DNA of 64,000 nt from Streptomyces sp. NBC_01268 (lineage in GTDB: Bacteria > Actinomycetota > Actinomycetes > Streptomycetales > Streptomycetaceae). The position numbers and the translations under genes are program-made. The number at the start of each line of letters is the position of its first letter. The stretch's first letter is position 1. Positions 10,021-58,272 of the stretch are shown here, piece by piece. Under the pieces are notes generated by a model. The model was not told the origin of the DNA. It saw only the letters and a list, made by a program, of their open reading frames with translations, and did not search any database. The stretch is taken from the NCBI RefSeq assembly GCF_036240795.1, contig NZ_CP108454.1:3658001-3722000 (forward strand). Direction: 5' to 3'.

Positions 10021-10231
10021 TGGGCGACCGTAGGCAAGGGGACGGGGGCTCTTCGCACCGCTTGCACACTTTTAATCCGTACGGGTGAAGCTATCGCTCG
10101 AAGGGGTACAGGAACCCGGCCGTCCCACCTTTTTCCGGCCGCGCTCGCCCCGCCCGGCGGTCTCCCGGGCGGGGCGGCGGATCCTCGGCGCCGGCACGGG
10201 GCTGTCAGTGGCGGCCGATACGGTGTGGCGC

Positions 10232-11641
10232 ATGGCTGCCCGTACGAAAACCGCCAAGGACCGGCCGTCCTACCGCTGCACCGAGTGCGGCTGGCAGACG
10301 GCCAAGTGGCTCGGCCGCTGCCCCGAATGCCAGGCATGGGGGACGGTCGAGGAGTACGGCGCGCCCGCCGTGCGGACCACCGCCGTCGGGCGGGTGTCCA
10401 CCTCGGCGCTGCCCATCGCCCAGGTCGACGGCCGGCAGGCCACCGCCCGCACCACCGGCGTCGACGAGCTGGACCGGGTGCTCGGCGGTGGGCTCGTGCC
10501 CGGGGCGGTCGTGCTGCTCGCCGGGGAGCCGGGCGTCGGCAAGTCCACGCTGCTGCTCGACGTCGCCGCCAAGGCCGCGAGCGACGCGCACCGCACGCTG
10601 TACGTGACGGGCGAGGAGTCGGCGAGCCAGGTCCGGCTGCGCGCCGACCGGATCCACGCCCTCAGCGACCACCTGTACCTGGCGGCCGAGACCGACCTCT
10701 CCGCCGTCCTGGGCCACCTGGACGAGGTCAAGCCGTCCCTGCTGGTCCTGGACTCGGTGCAGACCGTCGCCTCCCCCGAGATCGACGGCGCCCCCGGCGG
10801 CATGGCGCAGGTCCGCGAGGTCGCCGGGGCGCTGATCCGGGCGTCCAAGGAGCGGGGCATGTCCACCCTGCTCGTCGGCCACGTCACCAAGGACGGCGCC
10901 ATCGCGGGCCCCCGCCTCCTGGAGCACCTGGTCGACGTGGTGCTGCACTTCGAGGGCGACCGGCACGCCCGGCTCCGCCTGGTCCGCGGCGTGAAGAACC
11001 GGTACGGGGCGACCGACGAGGTCGGCTGCTTCGAGCTGCACGACGAGGGCATCACCGGCCTCGCCGACCCCTCGGGCCTCTTCCTGACCCGCCGTGACGT
11101 CGCCGTCCCCGGCACCTGCCTGACGGTCACCCTGGAGGGCCGCAGGCCGCTGGTCGCCGAGGTGCAGGCGCTGACCGTGGACTCCCAGATCCCGTCGCCG
11201 CGCCGCACCACCTCGGGCCTGGAGACCTCCCGCGTCTCGATGATGCTGGCCGTCCTGGAGCAGCGGGGCCGGATCAGCGCCCTGGGCAAGCGGGACATCT
11301 ACAGCGCGACCGTGGGCGGCGTGAAGCTGTCCGAGCCCGCCGCCGACCTGGCCATCGCCCTCGCGCTGGCCTCCGCCGCCAGCGACACCCCGCTGCCGAA
11401 GAACCTGGTCGCGATCGGCGAGGTCGGGCTCGCGGGCGAGGTCCGCCGGGTCACCGGCGTCCAGCGCCGGCTCGCCGAGGCGCACCGGCTGGGCTTCACC
11501 CACGCCCTGGTCCCGGCCGACCCGGGCAAGGTCCCGGCCGGCATGCAGGTGACCGAGGTCGCCAACGTGGGCGACGCCCTGCGGGTCCTGCCGCGCGGCC
11601 GCCGCACGCGGACGCCCGAGGAGGGCCAGGGCGCGGGGTAG
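10232..11641 (+). CDS. radA: DNA repair protein RadA (Sms)
   Basis: RadA (469 residues) is a RecA-like ATPase and branch-migration helicase acting in recombinational repair. It shows the N-terminal zinc finger [18 protein letters not shown], Walker [11 protein letters not shown], Walker B-like [10 protein letters not shown], the RadA signature KNRYG ([12 protein letters not shown]) and a C-terminal Lon-protease-like domain ([20 protein letters not shown]). The ATG at 10232 begins [16 protein letters not shown] just ahead of the finger. A 49-residue N-terminal extension in the same frame is not family-like. It is followed by disA 128 bases downstream, the conserved radA-disA pairing. Confidence 0.97.
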
Positions 11642-19147: not shown

Positions 19148-19210
19148 GGGCGGGGCTCCTTGCGCGGGCTCCTTGCGCGGGACGCTTGCGCCGGGCCATG
19201 CGCCCGAGCC

Positions 19211-19264
19211 GAGCAAGCCGAGCAAGCCGAGCAAGCCGAGCAAGCCGAGCAAGCCGAGCAAGCC
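19211..19264. repeat. six tandem copies of a 9-bp repeat (GAGCAAGCC)
   Basis: Six exact head-to-tail copies of GAGCAAGCC run from 19211 to 19264, preceded by a degenerate copy. The tract lies between the cseC stop (19147) and the terminator at 19272. Two copies of GGGCTCCTTGCGCGG-like sequence sit just upstream (about 19156-19185). The tract translates in all frames and looks like simple slippage repeat, not a CRISPR. A binding role is possible but unproven. Confidence 0.9.
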
Positions 19265-19271
19265 GATGACA

Positions 19272-21660: not shown

Positions 21661-22341
21661 TCAGATGGAGACGCCGTGGGACCGCAGGAAGGCGGCCGGG
21701 TTCACGGCGGAGCCGTAGTTCGGGGTGGTGCGGATCTCGAAGTGCAGGTGCGGGCCGGAGGAGTTGCCGGTGTTGCCCGACAGGGCGATCTGCTGACCGG
21801 CGGCGACCGACTGGCCGATGTTCACCTTGATCTTCGACAGGTGGGCGTACTGCGAGTACGTGCCGTTGGCGTGCTTCACGACGATCGCGTTGCCGTACGC
21901 CGGGCCGTCGCCGCCACCGTTGGGGCCGGCCTTCACGACGGTGCCGGCCGCGGCGGCCTTGACCGGGGTGCCGACCGGGACGGCGAAGTCCTGGCCGGAG
22001 TGCTTGTGGGCCCACATGGCGCCGCCCTGGTTGAAGGAGGCGCTCAGCGTGTAGGCGCTGACGGGCTTGACCCAGGAGGCCGCCTTCTTGGCAGCCACGA
22101 CCTTGACCTGCGCCTTGGCGGCGGCGGCCTTCACCTGCGCGGCCTTGACCTGGGTGGCGGTCTCGGCCTGGACGGCGGCCTGCTTCGCGATCGCGGCGGA
22201 CGTGGTGCCCGCGACGGCGGCCGTGCCCTCGGCGGCGAAGGCGGACCCGGCTCCGGCCACCAGCGACGCTCCCAGGCCGGCGGTGGCGAGGGTGGCGACG
22301 GCGGCGATACGGATGCTGGGCTTCATGACGCGCTTCGACAT
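21661..22341 (-). CDS. secreted M23-family peptidoglycan endopeptidase
   Basis: 226 residues. The signal peptide (MSKRVMKPSIRIAAVATLAT to SAFAAEG) is cut near residue 40. An Ala/Lys-rich linker (about 45-100) with KAAQVKAAAAKAQVKV repeats may bind wall polymers. The LytM/M23 catalytic domain has HKHSGQDFAVPVG (His and Asp zinc ligands), YSQYAHLSKI and GPHLHFEIRT (catalytic and ligand His). It should hydrolyse peptide cross-links in the wall. The ATG at 22341 has GGAGG about 11 bases upstream. A 32-residue longer reading from 22437 is rejected because it precedes the signal peptide. It has a long structured leader region. Confidence 0.92.
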   Translation of the reverse strand: MSKRVMKPSIRIAAVATLATAGLGASLVAGAGSAFAAEGTAAVAGTTSAAIAKQAAVQAETATQVKAAQVKAAAAKAQVKVVAAKKAASWVKPVSAYTLSASFNQGGAMWAHKHSGQDFAVPVGTPVKAAAAGTVVKAGPNGGGDGPAYGNAIVVKHANGTYSQYAHLSKIKVNIGQSVAAGQQIALSGNTGNSSGPHLHFEIRTTPNYGSAVNPAAFLRSHGVSI

Positions 22342-22597
22342 ACGGGGGAGAACCTCCGGACAGAACGGGACCCGACGCGACAGCGGTCTGCGCCGGGCTT
22401 GCTCATCCTTGGTAACCCGGACCCCCAGCCATCCCAAAACACCCCATCTACGACATCGCGTCGTAGCGATCTCCGGCGGAGATCGACCCTTGACGCCCGG
22501 AAGCCGGGGTCGCGAAATCGGACATAACCTCCCTGATCGATCCGTTTAACCCCACGTCGCGAGCGTCCCGAACCGCCCGAAAGGCAGTCCGATGTCC

Positions 22598-22805: not shown

Positions 22806-23150
22806 ATGACCCAGGACATCTCCAAGATCGAACTCGCCGACGCGATCGCCTCCGTACGCGACCAGCTCGTCGACGCCGCCGCCCGCGCCACCGGGCAGCC
22901 CGTCGGATTCGAGGTCGGCGACATCCAGATGGAGTTCACGATCGAACTCCGCAAAGAGCTCAAGGGCGGCACGAAGGTCAAGGCCTGGGTCGTCGAAGCC
23001 GGCGCCGACGCGTCCCGCACCCGCGGCGAGACCCACCGCGTCTCCTTCACCCTGAAGCCGCGGGACACGGCGACGGGCGGGGCGTGGCTGGTGGGGAACG
23101 AGGAGGCGGCGGACCTCTCCGGCTTCGGGGGCGGGGCTGAGGGCCGGTGA
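22806..23150 (+). CDS. trypco2-domain protein (partner of the trypsin-NACHT protein)
   Basis: 114 residues. An N-terminal helix (IELADAIASVRDQLVDAAARA) leads to a beta-rich half (VGFEVGDIQMEFTIELRKEL, then GTKVKAWVVEAGADASR). This matches the trypsin-co-occurring domain 2 (trypco2) described in predicted bacterial conflict systems. Its TGA overlaps the GTG of the next gene in a 4-bp GTGA, so the two are translationally coupled. It probably binds or regulates the protease domain of that protein, which is inference. The ATG at 22806 begins MTQDISKIELADA; the frame is open upstream to 22701 but that part is low-complexity. The C-terminus is Gly-rich. Confidence 0.8.
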   Translation: MTQDISKIELADAIASVRDQLVDAAARATGQPVGFEVGDIQMEFTIELRKELKGGTKVKAWVVEAGADASRTRGETHRVSFTLKPRDTATGGAWLVGNEEAADLSGFGGGAEGR

Positions 23151-25915
23151 CGGCGGGCGTCGTCTTCGCGGTCCTCGGACGGCGGCAGGGCAGCGGGGTC
23201 CTCGTGGCACCCGGCATTCTTCTGACCAGCGCCCATGTCCTCGACGGCGCCCGCAGCGCCGTGGCCGTGGCCCCGAACCGGGACGCGACCCGCTTACGGG
23301 TGGTGTGGTCGGACGACCGTCTCGACGCGGCGCTCCTGCAGGGCGACACGGGCGGCACCCCCACCCCTCCGCTCAGCACGGTCATCACCACCCGCCCGAT
23401 ACCCGGCTGCGAGATCCTCGGCTACCCCCGGATCCAGCGGCACGACGGCCAGAAGCTGGACCTCGACCAGTTCACCGGCACCGTGCTGCCCATGGCCGGG
23501 CTCCTCCGCCGCACCCTGACCGTCGAACTGGACCACCCGCCCGTCACCGCCGACGAGGACGGCCCCTCCCCGCTCGCGGGCCTCTCCGGCGCCCCCGTCT
23601 TCGCCGGCGAGAGACTCCTCGGCATCGTCCGCGCCGTCCCGCGCGGCCGGGGCCACCGGCGCCTGGAGTGCGTCTCCCTCACCGCCGTCCTCGCCGACGA
23701 GGCGGCACGCCAGTGGCTCCCCACCGTCTCCGTGGCGACCACCGGCGCCCACCCCCGTGACGACTTCCACGAGGAGGAGTACGGCGAGGCCTTGGGCGCC
23801 GCCTACCGCCGCACCAAGATCTTCGGCCTCGACGAGCTCGGCAAGCGGACCTCCGAGTGGGACCTCGACACCGCCTACCTCTCCCTGGAGGCCACCTCCC
23901 GCGACCAGGAGGCCGTCCCCGTCCCCCGCCGCATCGACGACCTGCTCGCCGCCCGCCCCCGCGTGCTGCTGCGGGGCGACGCGGGCGCCGGGAAGACCAC
24001 GCTCATGTGGTGGCTGGCCGCCCACGCCGCCGCCGGCACCCTCGGCCCGGAGCTCGCCGAGCTCAACGGCCTCGTCCCCTTCGTCGTCCCGCTGCGCTCC
24101 CTGCGGGCCCGCGGCAACGGCTTCCCCTCCCCCGCCGAGCTGCCCGGAGTCGCCGGACTCATGATCGACGCGGCACCCGAGGGCTGGGCGGGCCGGGTGC
24201 TGGCCGCCGGACGCGGGCTGCTCCTCGTCGACGGCCTGGACGAGGTCACCCAGGCCGACCGGGAGGACGCCCACGCCTGGCTCGGCGGCTTACTGGCCCG
24301 CTACCCCGGCACCCGCTGCGTGGCGACCGTACGTCCCCACGCCGTAGCCGCCGACTGGCTGGGCGGCGAGGGCTTCGAGGAGCTGACCCTCCTGCCCCTC
24401 CGGGGCGACGACATCCAGGCCTTCGTCGCCGCCTGGCACGAGGCCGCCCGCTTCGACACGGCCCCGGGCGAGAACCTGGCCGACCTCGAACACGACCTGG
24501 CCCAGCAGTTCCGCCACAACCCGAACCTCGCCGAACTGGCCCGGACCCCGCTCCTCTGCGCGGTGATCTGCGCCCTCCACCGGCAACGGGAGGGCTTCCT
24601 CCCCGAGACCCGCTGGGCCCTGTACGACTCCGCCCTCACGATGCTGCTCGGCGCCCGCGACGAGCGGCGCCGCATCGACGCGCCCGACGGCATCCGCATG
24701 ACGGTCGAGGAGCACACCCAGCTCCTCCAGCGCTTCGCCGCCTGGCTGGTGCGGGTCGGCCAGACCGAGTTCACGCGCGAGCAGGCCCTCCAGCGTCTGG
24801 GACGTGACCTGCCCGGGATGCCCCGCGTCCAGGAGCAGGGCAGCACGGACGAGATCCTGACCCACCTCCTCAACCGCAGCGGTCTCCTCCAGGAGCGCAC
24901 GAGCGACGTCTTCCAGTTCGCCCACCGCACCTTCCAGGACTTCCTGGCCGCGAAGGAGTTCGTCGAGGACGACGCGCTGAAGGAGATCCTGCCCCGCGCG
25001 CACGACCAGCAGTGGCACGACGTCCTGCTGCTCGCCGCCGGGCACTGCAAGCGCCGTGACCTGCCGGTCCTGGTGGAGGGCCTGCTGAAGGCCGGCTCCG
25101 CGACGCGGAAGCAGGACCTGAAGACGACGCTGTACGTCCTGGCCGCGCTGGCCTCCCAGCACGCGGCCTGGCTGGACGAGACCCTACGGCGACGGGTCCA
25201 GAAAGCCGTGACGTCGGTGGTTCCGCCGCGGAACCGGGAGCAGCTGATCCAGCTGGCCCGGCTCGGCGCGTATGTACTGCCGCTGTTGCCAAAGCCTCAG
25301 GAGACGTCCAAGGACACGGTGGAGATGGTCACCGGGCTGATCTCCACCATCGGTGGAACGGTCGCCCTCCCGTACGCCCGCGCCTTCTCCGAGGCCGGTG
25401 AGGCACACCGGTTCGCGTCGAACTGGGACACGTTCCCGGCGACGGCCTTCGCCCGGGAGGTGCTCACCCACCTCCAGGATCATTCCCTGGTCAGCGCCTT
25501 CGGCCTCCAGCAGCTGCGACTCCTGCGGGAACTGCCTCACCTCACGCAGGTCCTGGTCATAGGCGACGTGCCCGCGAACGAGATCGTCGAGGCACTCGGC
25601 AACCGCCCGCTGAGGCACCTCAGCATCGGCATCAACAACGTGCTGGACACGCTCGATTTCCTGCCGTCGCTCGACTGCTCCCAGCTCCGCGGTCTGCTCG
25701 TCAGCGACTGCCCCCTCGTCACGCGCCTGGACCCGATCGGGGAGCTGCACGATCTCAGGCTGCTCAGGCTCGCCAACGTGCGAGACACCGATGGAACGCT
25801 CGATCTGACCCCGCTCCACGGGTTGCCGGAAACCCTCCAGGTCATGGTCTCCGACACCCCCCGCAAGAACCTCATCGGCGCCGCCGCCCTGGGCGAACGC
25901 CTGGCCGTCAAATGA
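23147..25915 (+). CDS. trypsin-like protease / NACHT NTPase / repeat STAND protein
   Basis: 922 residues. Residues about 1-190 are a trypsin-like serine protease with a complete triad: His30 in LLTSAHVLDG, Asp60 in DRLDAALL and Ser147 in GLSGAPVF. Residues about 265-600 are a NACHT-type STAND NTPase with Walker A GDAGAGKTT (Lys283), Walker B LLLVDGLDE (about 358-366) and NPNLAELARTPLLCAVICAL. A helical region and then a leucine-rich-like repeat part (about 765-905, LRHLSIGIN, LRGLLVSDCPL, LRLLRLANV) end the protein. This is the effector-switch-sensor layout of NLR-like antiphage or programmed-death proteins. There is no signal peptide, so it acts in the cytosol. The start overlaps trypco2. 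Confidence 0.9.
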   Translation: MTAGVVFAVLGRRQGSGVLVAPGILLTSAHVLDGARSAVAVAPNRDATRLRVVWSDDRLDAALLQGDTGGTPTPPLSTVITTRPIPGCEILGYPRIQRHDGQKLDLDQFTGTVLPMAGLLRRTLTVELDHPPVTADEDGPSPLAGLSGAPVFAGERLLGIVRAVPRGRGHRRLECVSLTAVLADEAARQWLPTVSVATTGAHPRDDFHEEEYGEALGAAYRRTKIFGLDELGKRTSEWDLDTAYLSLEATSRDQEAVPVPRRIDDLLAARPRVLLRGDAGAGKTTLMWWLAAHAAAGTLGPELAELNGLVPFVVPLRSLRARGNGFPSPAELPGVAGLMIDAAPEGWAGRVLAAGRGLLLVDGLDEVTQADREDAHAWLGGLLARYPGTRCVATVRPHAVAADWLGGEGFEELTLLPLRGDDIQAFVAAWHEAARFDTAPGENLADLEHDLAQQFRHNPNLAELARTPLLCAVICALHRQREGFLPETRWALYDSALTMLLGARDERRRIDAPDGIRMTVEEHTQLLQRFAAWLVRVGQTEFTREQALQRLGRDLPGMPRVQEQGSTDEILTHLLNRSGLLQERTSDVFQFAHRTFQDFLAAKEFVEDDALKEILPRAHDQQWHDVLLLAAGHCKRRDLPVLVEGLLKAGSATRKQDLKTTLYVLAALASQHAAWLDETLRRRVQKAVTSVVPPRNREQLIQLARLGAYVLPLLPKPQETSKDTVEMVTGLISTIGGTVALPYARAFSEAGEAHRFASNWDTFPATAFAREVLTHLQDHSLVSAFGLQQLRLLRELPHLTQVLVIGDVPANEIVEALGNRPLRHLSIGINNVLDTLDFLPSLDCSQLRGLLVSDCPLVTRLDPIGELHDLRLLRLANVRDTDGTLDLTPLHGLPETLQVMVSDTPRKNLIGAAALGERLAVK

Positions 25916-25917
25916 AC

Positions 25918-25961
25918 GAAGGGGCGGCCCCGGAACCGTCAGGTTCCGGGGCCGCCCCTTC
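25918..25961. terminator. perfect 20-bp hairpin terminator
   Basis: Bases 25918-25937 pair exactly with 25942-25961 around a GTCA loop. It begins 2 bases after the trypsin-NACHT stop and also lies 25 bases past the clpC stop on the other strand, so it closes both transcripts. It is among the strongest terminators in the window. Confidence 0.9.
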
Positions 25962-25986: not shown

Positions 25987-28509
<2,523 letters not shown>

Positions 28510-28982: not shown

Positions 28983-29591
28983 ATGGCCCTCACCGTCCCC
29001 TTCCCCCGCTCGCCGATCGACGGCGGTTCGGCGCGGTGGTACGCGCACGAGCTCGGCTGGGCGGCGGTGGCCGGACCTCCGGTGCAGCTGGTGACGGGGC
29101 TGCGTTTCGACGTCCTCGACATGCCCGCCGCGGCCGGTCGCGGAGTGCTGCGCCGCGTGGGCGCGGGCACCGGACCGGTGGCCCTCATGGGGCGGAGGAT
29201 GCGGCTGCTCGTGGCAGCGGGGAGCGCGGAGGAGCTGCCCGGACTGCTGGAGTGGCTGGAGTGGGGCGGGATCTCACTGGATCTCGCGGCCCTGGGCGCC
29301 GACGGCCGGATGGCCGCGCCCGTTCCCCCTGGGTGGAGCCGTTCCGGCGCGCCGGGTGCCCCGGTGTGGCTGAGGGCCCCGGAGCCCGGTCGCGAGGTGG
29401 AGTCCTCGCTGCCGGCCCTGCGGCCCTCGGCGGTGCGGGACGGAGCGGGCGCCCCCTGTCTGGCCCGGCTGGTGGCCGCGGCCGCCGCGGAGTGCCACCG
29501 GGTGCGGCTGCTGGGTGCCGTCCGGAACCACCCGCGGGGGGCGGGCCCGGCGACCCGGCAGCCGGCGCCTCAGCGGTTCGCGTCCTCGTAG
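28983..29591 (+). CDS. conserved Streptomyces protein resembling a bifunctional primase/polymerase N-terminal region
   Basis: 202 residues. It opens with SPIDGGSARWYAHELGWAAV, then LVTGLRFDVLDMPAAAG and LLVAAGSAEELPGLLEWLEW, a pattern seen in Streptomyces proteins annotated as prim-pol-like (bifunctional DNA primase/polymerase N-terminal). The catalytic Asp/His residues of true prim-pol are not obvious, so activity is doubtful. The C-terminal third is Ala/Arg/Pro-rich. The stop overlaps the end of lsr2 by 22 bases tail to tail. The ATG start at 28983 has GGAGG about 12 bases upstream. Confidence 0.75.
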   Translation: MALTVPFPRSPIDGGSARWYAHELGWAAVAGPPVQLVTGLRFDVLDMPAAAGRGVLRRVGAGTGPVALMGRRMRLLVAAGSAEELPGLLEWLEWGGISLDLAALGADGRMAAPVPPGWSRSGAPGAPVWLRAPEPGREVESSLPALRPSAVRDGAGAPCLARLVAAAAAECHRVRLLGAVRNHPRGAGPATRQPAPQRFASS

Positions 29592-29908
29592 GCCGCCTTG
29601 ATCTCGGCCGGCACGCGACCGCGGTCGTTCACGTTGTAACCGTTCTCCTTGGCCCACGCGCGGATCTTCGCGGTGTCCGGGCTGCCGCCGGAGGCGACCA
29701 CACGGCCCTTGCCCCGGCCGCCGGCGCTGCGGCCACCGGTACGACGACCGCTCTTGGTGTACGGCTCGAGCAGGTCGCGGAGCTTGTCCGCGTTGGCGGT
29801 GGTGAGGTCGATCTCGTAGGACTTGCCGTCCAGAGCGAACGTCACGGTCTCGTCCGCCTCGCCGCCGTCGAGGTCATCGACAAGAAGGACCTGAACCTTC
29901 TGTGCCAC
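29570..29908 (-). CDS. lsr2: Lsr2 nucleoid-associated xenogeneic silencer
   Basis: 112 residues. The N-terminal oligomerisation domain is VAQKVQVLLVDDLDGGEADETV and TFALDGKSYEIDLTTANADK. A basic Gly/Arg linker (SGRRTGGRSAGGRGKG) joins the C-terminal DNA-binding domain, with IRAWAKENGYNVNDRGRVPAEI containing the RGR AT-hook-like motif. Lsr2 bridges AT-rich DNA and silences acquired genes. The GTG at 29908 is chosen because AAAGGAA lies 5 bases upstream and it gives the family start; an in-frame ATG at 29923 adds 5 residues. A single lsr2 copy is in the window; Streptomyces often has a second elsewhere. Confidence 0.95.
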   Translation of the reverse strand: MAQKVQVLLVDDLDGGEADETVTFALDGKSYEIDLTTANADKLRDLLEPYTKSGRRTGGRSAGGRGKGRVVASGGSPDTAKIRAWAKENGYNVNDRGRVPAEIKAAYEDANR

Positions 29909-29923
29909 CGGATTTCCTTTCAT

Positions 29924-56247: not shown

Positions 56248-58272
<2,025 letters not shown>

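What the first reader, a model, noticed from the sequence alone, without database searches (positions are those of the whole stretch)
22806..25961. Two-gene trypco2 + trypsin-NACHT-repeat unit: a probable antiphage / programmed-death NLR-like system
One protein holds a complete trypsin triad (His30, Asp60, Ser147), a NACHT STAND NTPase (GDAGAGKTT, LLLVDGLDE) and a C-terminal repeat sensor. It is coupled by a 4-bp GTGA overlap to a trypco2 protein. Trypsin/trypco modules and STAND NTPases are known parts of predicted bacterial conflict systems, and some AVAST defence types combine a trypsin-like protease with a STAND protein. Here protease effector, NTPase switch and sensor are fused, and trypco2 may gate the protease. 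The unit sits as an island between core genes, with its own promoter and a perfect terminator. The trigger and cleaved target are unknown.
Basis: partly seen in the sequence, partly recalled or inferred. Interest (0 to 1): 0.85.

Follow-up and report, generated by a model that had tools for sequence, protein, structure and literature searches.

The report
Protease-armed bacterial NLR beside clpC
This Streptomyces gene pair looks like a built-in immune receptor, shaped like the inflammasome receptors of animals but carrying its own protease, at a chromosomal spot where related species carry a different receptor version or none.

Summary
Window 22806-23150 encodes a 114-aa Trypco2 protein; 23147-25915 encodes a 922-aa protein with an HtrA-like protease, a NACHT ATPase and leucine-rich repeats. 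The genes overlap by GTGA. Catalytic Ser147 and the Walker residues are present in 120 of 120 listed homologs, His30 and Asp60 in 119. Residues 200-922 of the predicted model best match animal NLRs (NLRC4, NLRP3, NOD2); residues 1-190 match Deg/HtrA proteases.

New here: (1) The M23-clpC interval is a recurrent NLR site in Streptomyces: of 135 informative genomes, 22 carry the trypsin type (3 with both types), 49 only an NNH1-NACHT type, 2 fragments, 62 none. (2) The repeats are hypervariable, NACHT conserved. (3) Trypco2 follows the protease, not the switch: 30 of 33 Trypco2 loci have a trypsin-fold frame within 1.5 kb (19 of 22 outside the seed families, four of them weak), against 0 of 53 NACHT-less clpC flanks.

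Best reading: an intracellular NLR-type immune receptor with a protease effector and Trypco2 as its dedicated partner. Defence activity, trigger, target and Trypco2's exact role are inferred. It is a new variant of known bacterial NLRs and Trypco-trypsin modules. 'Island' is inexact and no promoter was found.

The parts
22806..23150 (+). Trypco2 protein, 114 aa (predicted helix 10-29 plus beta strands)
   Evidence: Pfam PF19631 93.7 bits; AlphaFold2 model pLDDT 69; about as conserved as NACHT in matched genomes
23147..25915 (+). HtrA-like protease - NACHT - LRR protein, 922 aa, GTG start overlapping the trypco2 stop
23180..23701 (+). trypsin/HtrA-like protease domain (residues 12-185); His30, Asp60, Ser147
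23933..24451 (+). NACHT NTPase core (residues 263-435), Walker A GDAGAGKTT, Walker B LLLVDGLDE
   Evidence: Pfam NACHT 77.6 bits; motif residues in 120 of 120
25487..25861 (+). leucine-rich-repeat sensor (residues 781-905), hypervariable
   Evidence: model strands 20-26 residues apart; column entropy 2.2-2.3 bits against 0.6 in NACHT
25918..25961 (.). perfect 20-bp inverted repeat between convergent genes, terminator-like
21661..22437 (-). left border gene of the site: M23 peptidase
   Evidence: Pfam Peptidase_M23 114 bits; borders the site in other species
25987..28509 (-). right border gene of the site: clpC (convergent)
   Evidence: Pfam Clp_N, AAA_2; strong match in 158 of 159 genomes

Best explanation
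A resident NLR-type intracellular immune receptor with a protease effector. Shown by sequence and model: HtrA-like protease, NACHT switch and LRR sensor in one chain, encoded in an overlapping pair with trypco2. Inferred: the LRR domain holds the NACHT in its resting state; an invader or stress cue releases it; NACHTs oligomerise with ATP; the clustered HtrA-like proteases become active and cleave a cellular or effector protein, arresting or killing the infected compartment. Trypco2 acts on the protease domain itself, most likely as a gate or cofactor (about 0.5), alternatively as its dedicated substrate (about 0.25).
Against: No phage or death assay. No PADLOC model fits (best E 4e-4, the protease part of another system). 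The unit sits at a fixed site between core genes, not in a recognised defence island. The trypsin type at this site is one clade (23 of 23), so within it the trypco2 pairing is one evolutionary event, and one second copy (L118, distal) has no trypco2 match beside it. No separate effector gene (nuclease, gasdermin) lies next to it, so the target is unknown. The Trypco2 model is only moderately confident and matched no solved fold.
Confidence: 0.62

Rival explanations
1. Trypco2 is not a regulator but the protease's dedicated substrate: a pro-effector cut on activation, as the nuclease is in Avs1 and Hachiman nuclease-protease pairs.
For: Same gene order as the published pairs (partner typically upstream, protease fused to the sensor; PMC12799240 passages). 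No other candidate substrate lies in the unit. Trypco2 adjacency to trypsin does not depend on the switch type.
Against: Trypco2 shows no enzymatic or pore-forming domain in Pfam and no solved-structure match (inconclusive). In 2 of 33 loci no trypsin fold was found within 1.5 kb by HMM or Pfam (L199, L202), one of them followed by a possible ternary-type protein (L231).
Confidence: 0.25
2. A housekeeping or developmental regulator: the NACHT-LRR protein senses a host signal and the protease tunes differentiation or proteostasis, perhaps with ClpC next door.
For: Residence beside clpC in many species. STAND proteins in bacteria have been primarily studied as transcriptional regulators (PMC7159879, passage).
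Against: Absent at the site in 62 of 135 informative genomes and replaced by the NNH1 type alone in 49. The sensor is the fastest-evolving part. Tandem copies and relics are not typical of a core regulator.
Confidence: 0.2
3. A selfish or addiction-like unit kept for its own persistence, with Trypco2 as antidote to the protease.
For: Two-gene overlapping pair with a small conserved upstream partner; patchy presence.
Against: Fixed site, no mobility genes among the ten nearby genes scanned, and a large NLR sensor that an addiction module does not need. A lone trypco2 without trypsin (L114) fits loss of the larger gene but proves nothing.
Confidence: 0.08

Closest known systems
Bacterial NLRs and NLR-related bNACHT proteins (Kibby et al. 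2023, seen only as cited; PMC12169576, passages)
   Same: Tripartite effector - NACHT - C-terminal sensor; LRR-bearing forms are called bona fide bacterial NLRs there
   Different: The four tested bNACHT proteins described there have a nuclease effector or no readily discernible one; here the effector is an HtrA-like protease with a Trypco2 partner, at a fixed Streptomyces site
Trypco-trypsin modules of VMAP/MoxR-vWA ternary conflict systems (Kaur et al. 2020, PMC7159879, passages)
   Same: Trypco2 gene adjacent to a trypsin-like peptidase
   Different: There the peptidase is coupled to VMAP with MoxR and vWA; here it is fused to NACHT-LRR, with M23 and clpC as neighbours
AVAST type 1 and other nuclease-protease pairs (PMC12799240, passages)
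   Same: Trypsin-like protease at the N-terminus of a STAND protein; a partner gene upstream
   Different: The upstream partner is Trypco2, not an MBL-fold nuclease; only a weak PADLOC Avs1b match, confined to the protease
CARD-NLR systems (LypABC in Caulobacter; Lysobacter gasdermin system; PMC13236601, passages)
   Same: Trypsin-like peptidase and an NLR-like protein driving lysis
   Different: There a CARD-peptidase-ATPase protein and the NLR-like protein are separate chains with a third effector protein; here one chain, no CARD detected and no such gene adjacent

Membership tests
Bacterial NLR (NACHT + LRR) | NACHT-clade NTPase with intact Walker A/B | tested here: met
   77.6 bits; motif residues in 120 of 120
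Bacterial NLR (NACHT + LRR) | C-terminal leucine-rich repeats | tested here: met
   AlphaFold2 repeat strands, NLR alignment to residue 922, Pfam LRR in a few longer homologs; Pfam alone on this protein is sub-threshold
Bacterial NLR (NACHT + LRR) | N-terminal effector domain | tested here: met
   Trypsin_2 / HtrA fold with intact triad
Bacterial NLR (NACHT + LRR) | antiphage activity | not testable with these tools
   needs phage challenge
Trypco2-trypsin module | Trypco2 gene adjacent to a trypsin-like peptidase gene | tested here: met
   30 of 33 Trypco2 loci
VMAP / MoxR-vWA ternary system | MoxR ATPase, vWA and VMAP genes in the same locus | tested here: not met
   ten genes between 17.8 and 32.8 kb scanned: histidine kinase, MFS, TetR, M23, ClpC, Lsr2, GNAT, penicillinase repressor, pantothenate kinase and one without a hit
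AVAST type 1 | MBL-fold nuclease gene upstream | tested here: not met
   the upstream partner is Trypco2; the next gene is M23
AVAST type 1 | Avs1b profile over most of its length | tested here: not met
   E 0.0063, residues 12-163 only, profile positions 17-166 of 1924
CARD-NLR / gasdermin system | CARD domain on the protease and a gasdermin or endonuclease gene alongside | tested here: not met
   the protease fold starts at the N-terminus; no such gene adjacent; distant genes not searched
HtrA/Deg protease | chymotrypsin-fold protease with His-Asp-Ser triad | tested here: met
HtrA/Deg protease | PDZ domain and family profile | tested here: not met
   no PDZ among Pfam matches up to E 1; NCBIfam Do-family score 16.4 against cut-off 416.2
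EruA antiphage NACHT protein | NCBIfam NF058535 above cut-off | tested here: not met
   28.5 bits against cut-off 1000

The most novel reading that the evidence does not exclude
Streptomyces keeps a standing NLR locus between an M23 peptidase gene and clpC, in which alternative effector modules (HtrA-like protease with Trypco2, or NNH1) ride on one NACHT-LRR chassis; and Trypco2 is the protease's released pro-effector or obligate co-effector, shared by receptors built on NACHT, NB-ARC, nSTAND5-like, CHAT and kinase switches. That would be a bacterial NLR-protease-pro-effector axis parallel to NLR-caspase-gasdermin.
Probability: 0.25. Interest if true: 0.8.

Novelty: new variant of a known kind. 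Interest (0 to 1): 0.57.

Why it matters
It offers a compact two-gene, one-receptor system in harmless, genetically tractable Streptomyces in which protease, switch and sensor sit in one chain, so the open question of what Trypco2 does becomes directly testable. The alternating clpC-M23 site gives natural effector-different pairs and empty controls, and a hypervariable LRR set for mapping what a bacterial NLR senses. It also suggests that NLR-like receptors in multicellular bacteria can be resident at a fixed chromosomal address rather than in mobile defence islands.

Tried and rejected
Solved-structure search by sequence found mainly weak Deg/HtrA and MarP-type hits. PADLOC and NCBIfam gave no system assignment. 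The Trypco2 model (pLDDT 69) had no PDB match below E 0.47: inconclusive, not evidence of a new fold. Rfam found nothing in the window at gathering scores. Promoter scan: 0 sites. PADLOC on nine long window proteins gave hits for three: 670-2802 (kinase profiles), 56251-58272 and weakly 10085-11641 (AAA-ATPase-type profiles); I read these as general kinase/ATPase similarity (inference), not a defence island. I considered repeated effector swaps at the site and found no sign of them: the trypsin type is one clade, 23 of 23, support 1.0, in a midpoint-rooted FastTree of 84 sequences. I considered mobility of the unit: clpC lies within 1.5 kb in 25 of the 29 best homolog loci, while several more divergent copies lie elsewhere. 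dN/dS on the LRR was not attempted.

Dropped rows and limits. In some searches, frames under 800 aa or with too short an N-terminus were left out (L066, the short L118 frame, one L145 frame, both L157 fragments). In 12 of the 49 NNH1-only flanks M23 was not seen in the fetched stretch, so the left border is unconfirmed there. Alignment A1 held the window plus 42 homologs that I picked from those with a Pfam trypsin call, so I rechecked triad and Walker residues on all 120 listed homologs. The 33 Trypco2 loci are those the tools gave as loci (2, 31, best scores first), not all places listed. The phylum search scored at most 18 candidates a genome.

Full report
What is there. The window lies in an 8.5-Mb single-contig genome whose listed close homologs with names are Streptomyces proteins. 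Gene 1 (22806-23150, +) encodes a 114-aa Trypco2 protein (PF19631, 93.7 bits). Gene 2 (23147-25915, +) starts at a GTG inside the overlap GTGA and encodes 922 aa with Trypsin_2 (34.1 bits) and NACHT (77.6 bits) above Pfam cut-offs. The C-terminal repeats are nearly invisible to Pfam here (E 0.3) but clear in the AlphaFold2 model (mean pLDDT 81.5, pTM 0.61; strands at about 781, 801, 824, 849, 872, 898). A perfect 20-bp hairpin lies between this gene and convergent clpC.

Conservation. In the 120 listed homologs (one is the window's own protein) Ser147, Lys283, Asp362, Asp365 and Glu366 are present in 120, His30 and Asp60 in 119, the exception (P0035) being shorter with a gap there. In an alignment of 43 chosen sequences, mean column entropy is 0.62 bit in NACHT, 0.71 just after it, 1.23 in the protease and 2.22 in the LRR, and the C-terminal part ranges from 106 to 273 residues; over all 120 listed plus the query the values are 0.63, 0.75, 1.33 and 2.30. 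In 22 matched genomes the median identity to the window is 64% for Trypco2, 47% for the protease, 68% for NACHT and 36% for the LRR (LRR found in 20 of 22); Trypco2 exceeds the protease in 22 of 22 (best hit per flank). This is the pattern of a conserved switch with a fast-evolving sensor, and it makes Trypco2 a strongly constrained partner.

A chromosomal site with alternative contents. A strong ClpC match was found in 158 of 159 genomes of the genus. I fetched the 3' flank of clpC in 140 of these besides the window's genome and classified the M23-clpC interval: 19 trypsin type only, 3 trypsin type plus the other type in tandem, 49 the other type only (8 of these with two or more copies; M23 seen in 37 of 49), 2 fragments only, 62 with M23 reached and no NACHT, 5 uninformative. 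The other type has NNH1 (PF22733) in place of the protease in 8 of 8 scanned, and its N-termini form one cluster of 61 frames. Among the eight genomes with ClpC at 98-99% identity to this one (L043-L050), the site holds the trypsin type in 3 (2 with the other type as well), the other type only in 3, and neither in 2. In the 140 flanks, trypco2 matches occur in all 22 trypsin-type flanks and in 2 others, both relic-like: decayed trypco2 and NACHT pieces in L157, and a lone trypco2 in L114 next to two NNH1-type genes. Against a strict pairing: L118 has two trypsin-type copies, and the distal one has no trypco2 match beside it; the proximal copy is broken. In some NACHT-less intervals a small phosphatase-like gene is present instead (6 of 12 intervals inspected; family recalled from its motif).

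History. In a tree of the NACHT region (84 sequences: 23 trypsin-type with the window, 61 NNH1-type) the trypsin type is monophyletic, 23 of 23, support 1.0. The effector difference on this chassis therefore looks like one exchange followed by gain, loss and duplication; the midpoint root does not settle the direction. Among the 29 best homolog loci other than the own genome's, clpC lies within 1.5 kb in 25, and trypco2 upstream within the flank in 27 of the 28 where the contig reaches far enough (L020 could not be tested; L008 lacks it).

Trypco2 belongs with the protease. Because the pairing inside the trypsin clade is one event, I tested other Trypco2 loci. Trypco2 occurs in 44 of 61 Streptomyces genomes but in 4 of 296 genomes of a phylum sample, 3 of them the same genus. 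A trypsin HMM built from this clade plus the genome's second copy finds a trypsin-fold frame within 1.5 kb in 30 of 33 Trypco2 loci, against 0 of 53 NACHT-less clpC flanks (stretches of over 9 kb) and 0 of 49 NNH1-only flanks. Eleven of the 33 are the window's own gene, the second copy, or other members of the same clade, so the fair count is 19 of 22. Of these 19, four are weak (L184, L208, L209, L210: E 6e-6 to 1.5e-4); the L184 hit is a frame of about 100 aa, and the L210 hit did not reappear on the wider stretch L233. Pfam adds one (L186/L230, trypsin plus kinase); L199 and L202 remain without a trypsin fold. Pfam on 15 of the partner proteins puts Trypsin_2 over its cut-off in 11 and below it in 4. 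The rest of these proteins differs: over cut-off are NACHT (L216, L222, L224), NB-ARC (L226), nSTAND5 (L215), CHAT (L227), kinase (L230) and TPR in several; in others the ATPase match is sub-threshold, and L225 shows none. In a few loci Trypco2 is divergent from the protease gene rather than upstream of it (L230, L232). This genome's second Trypco2 (G000:C1:4531079) precedes a protein with Trypsin_2 over cut-off and sub-threshold AAA_16 and TPR matches.

Mechanism. Shown: the architecture, its conservation, the site behaviour and the Trypco2-protease linkage. Inferred: LRR-gated NACHT oligomerisation, protease activation by clustering, and cleavage of a target leading to arrest or death. The precedents are the trypsin-fused STAND and Hachiman proteins that cut a partner nuclease on infection (PMC12799240, passages seen) and the peptidases needed for lysis in a CARD-NLR-like system (PMC13236601, passages seen). 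Trypco2 was named from its co-occurrence with trypsin in VMAP systems (PMC7159879, passages) and is called an adapter in PMC10907252 (passages). Whether it gates, assists or is cut by the protease is open.

Known or new. Bacterial NACHT proteins with LRRs are called bona fide bacterial NLRs in PMC12169576 (passages), citing Kibby et al. 2023, which I could not read. Trypsin domains in the N-terminal position of STAND proteins are described in PMC8195603 (passages). Public annotation already uses 'NACHT domain-containing protein' and 'trypco2 family protein'. I found no paper on this two-gene unit or on a clpC-M23 NLR site in the listings; these are listings of a partial library, most subscription papers are not held, and the two papers holding clpC, NACHT and Streptomyces were judged by title and abstract only. 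I therefore rate it a new variant of a known kind.

Noticed in passing
G000:C1:4531079-4535063 (L214): A second Trypco2-trypsin pair in the same genome, whose protein continues with weak AAA/STAND-like and TPR matches instead of NACHT-LRR.
   Followed up: partly
L230:4416-8000; L232:6015-10000: Trypco2 genes divergently transcribed from a trypsin-fold protein; in L230 that protein is fused to a Ser/Thr kinase and PknG-type TPR.
   Followed up: partly
L231:3063-8499: Trypco2 without an adjacent trypsin fold, followed by a 530-aa protein and a long protein that may contain a vWA-like segment: possibly a ternary-type conflict system (judged by eye).
   Followed up: no
L091, L100, L114, L125, L162, L168, L169, L173: Two or three NNH1-type NACHT genes in a row beside clpC, with deep divergence between copies of one genome (tree distances 1.1-2.0).
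   Followed up: partly
window about 19200-19270: A short tandem-repeat-like stretch read as AEQ/SKP/LAR repeats in overlapping frames, just past the histidine kinase gene.
   Followed up: no
window 29570-29923: An Lsr2 nucleoid-protein gene lies on the far side of clpC from the NLR unit.
   Followed up: no
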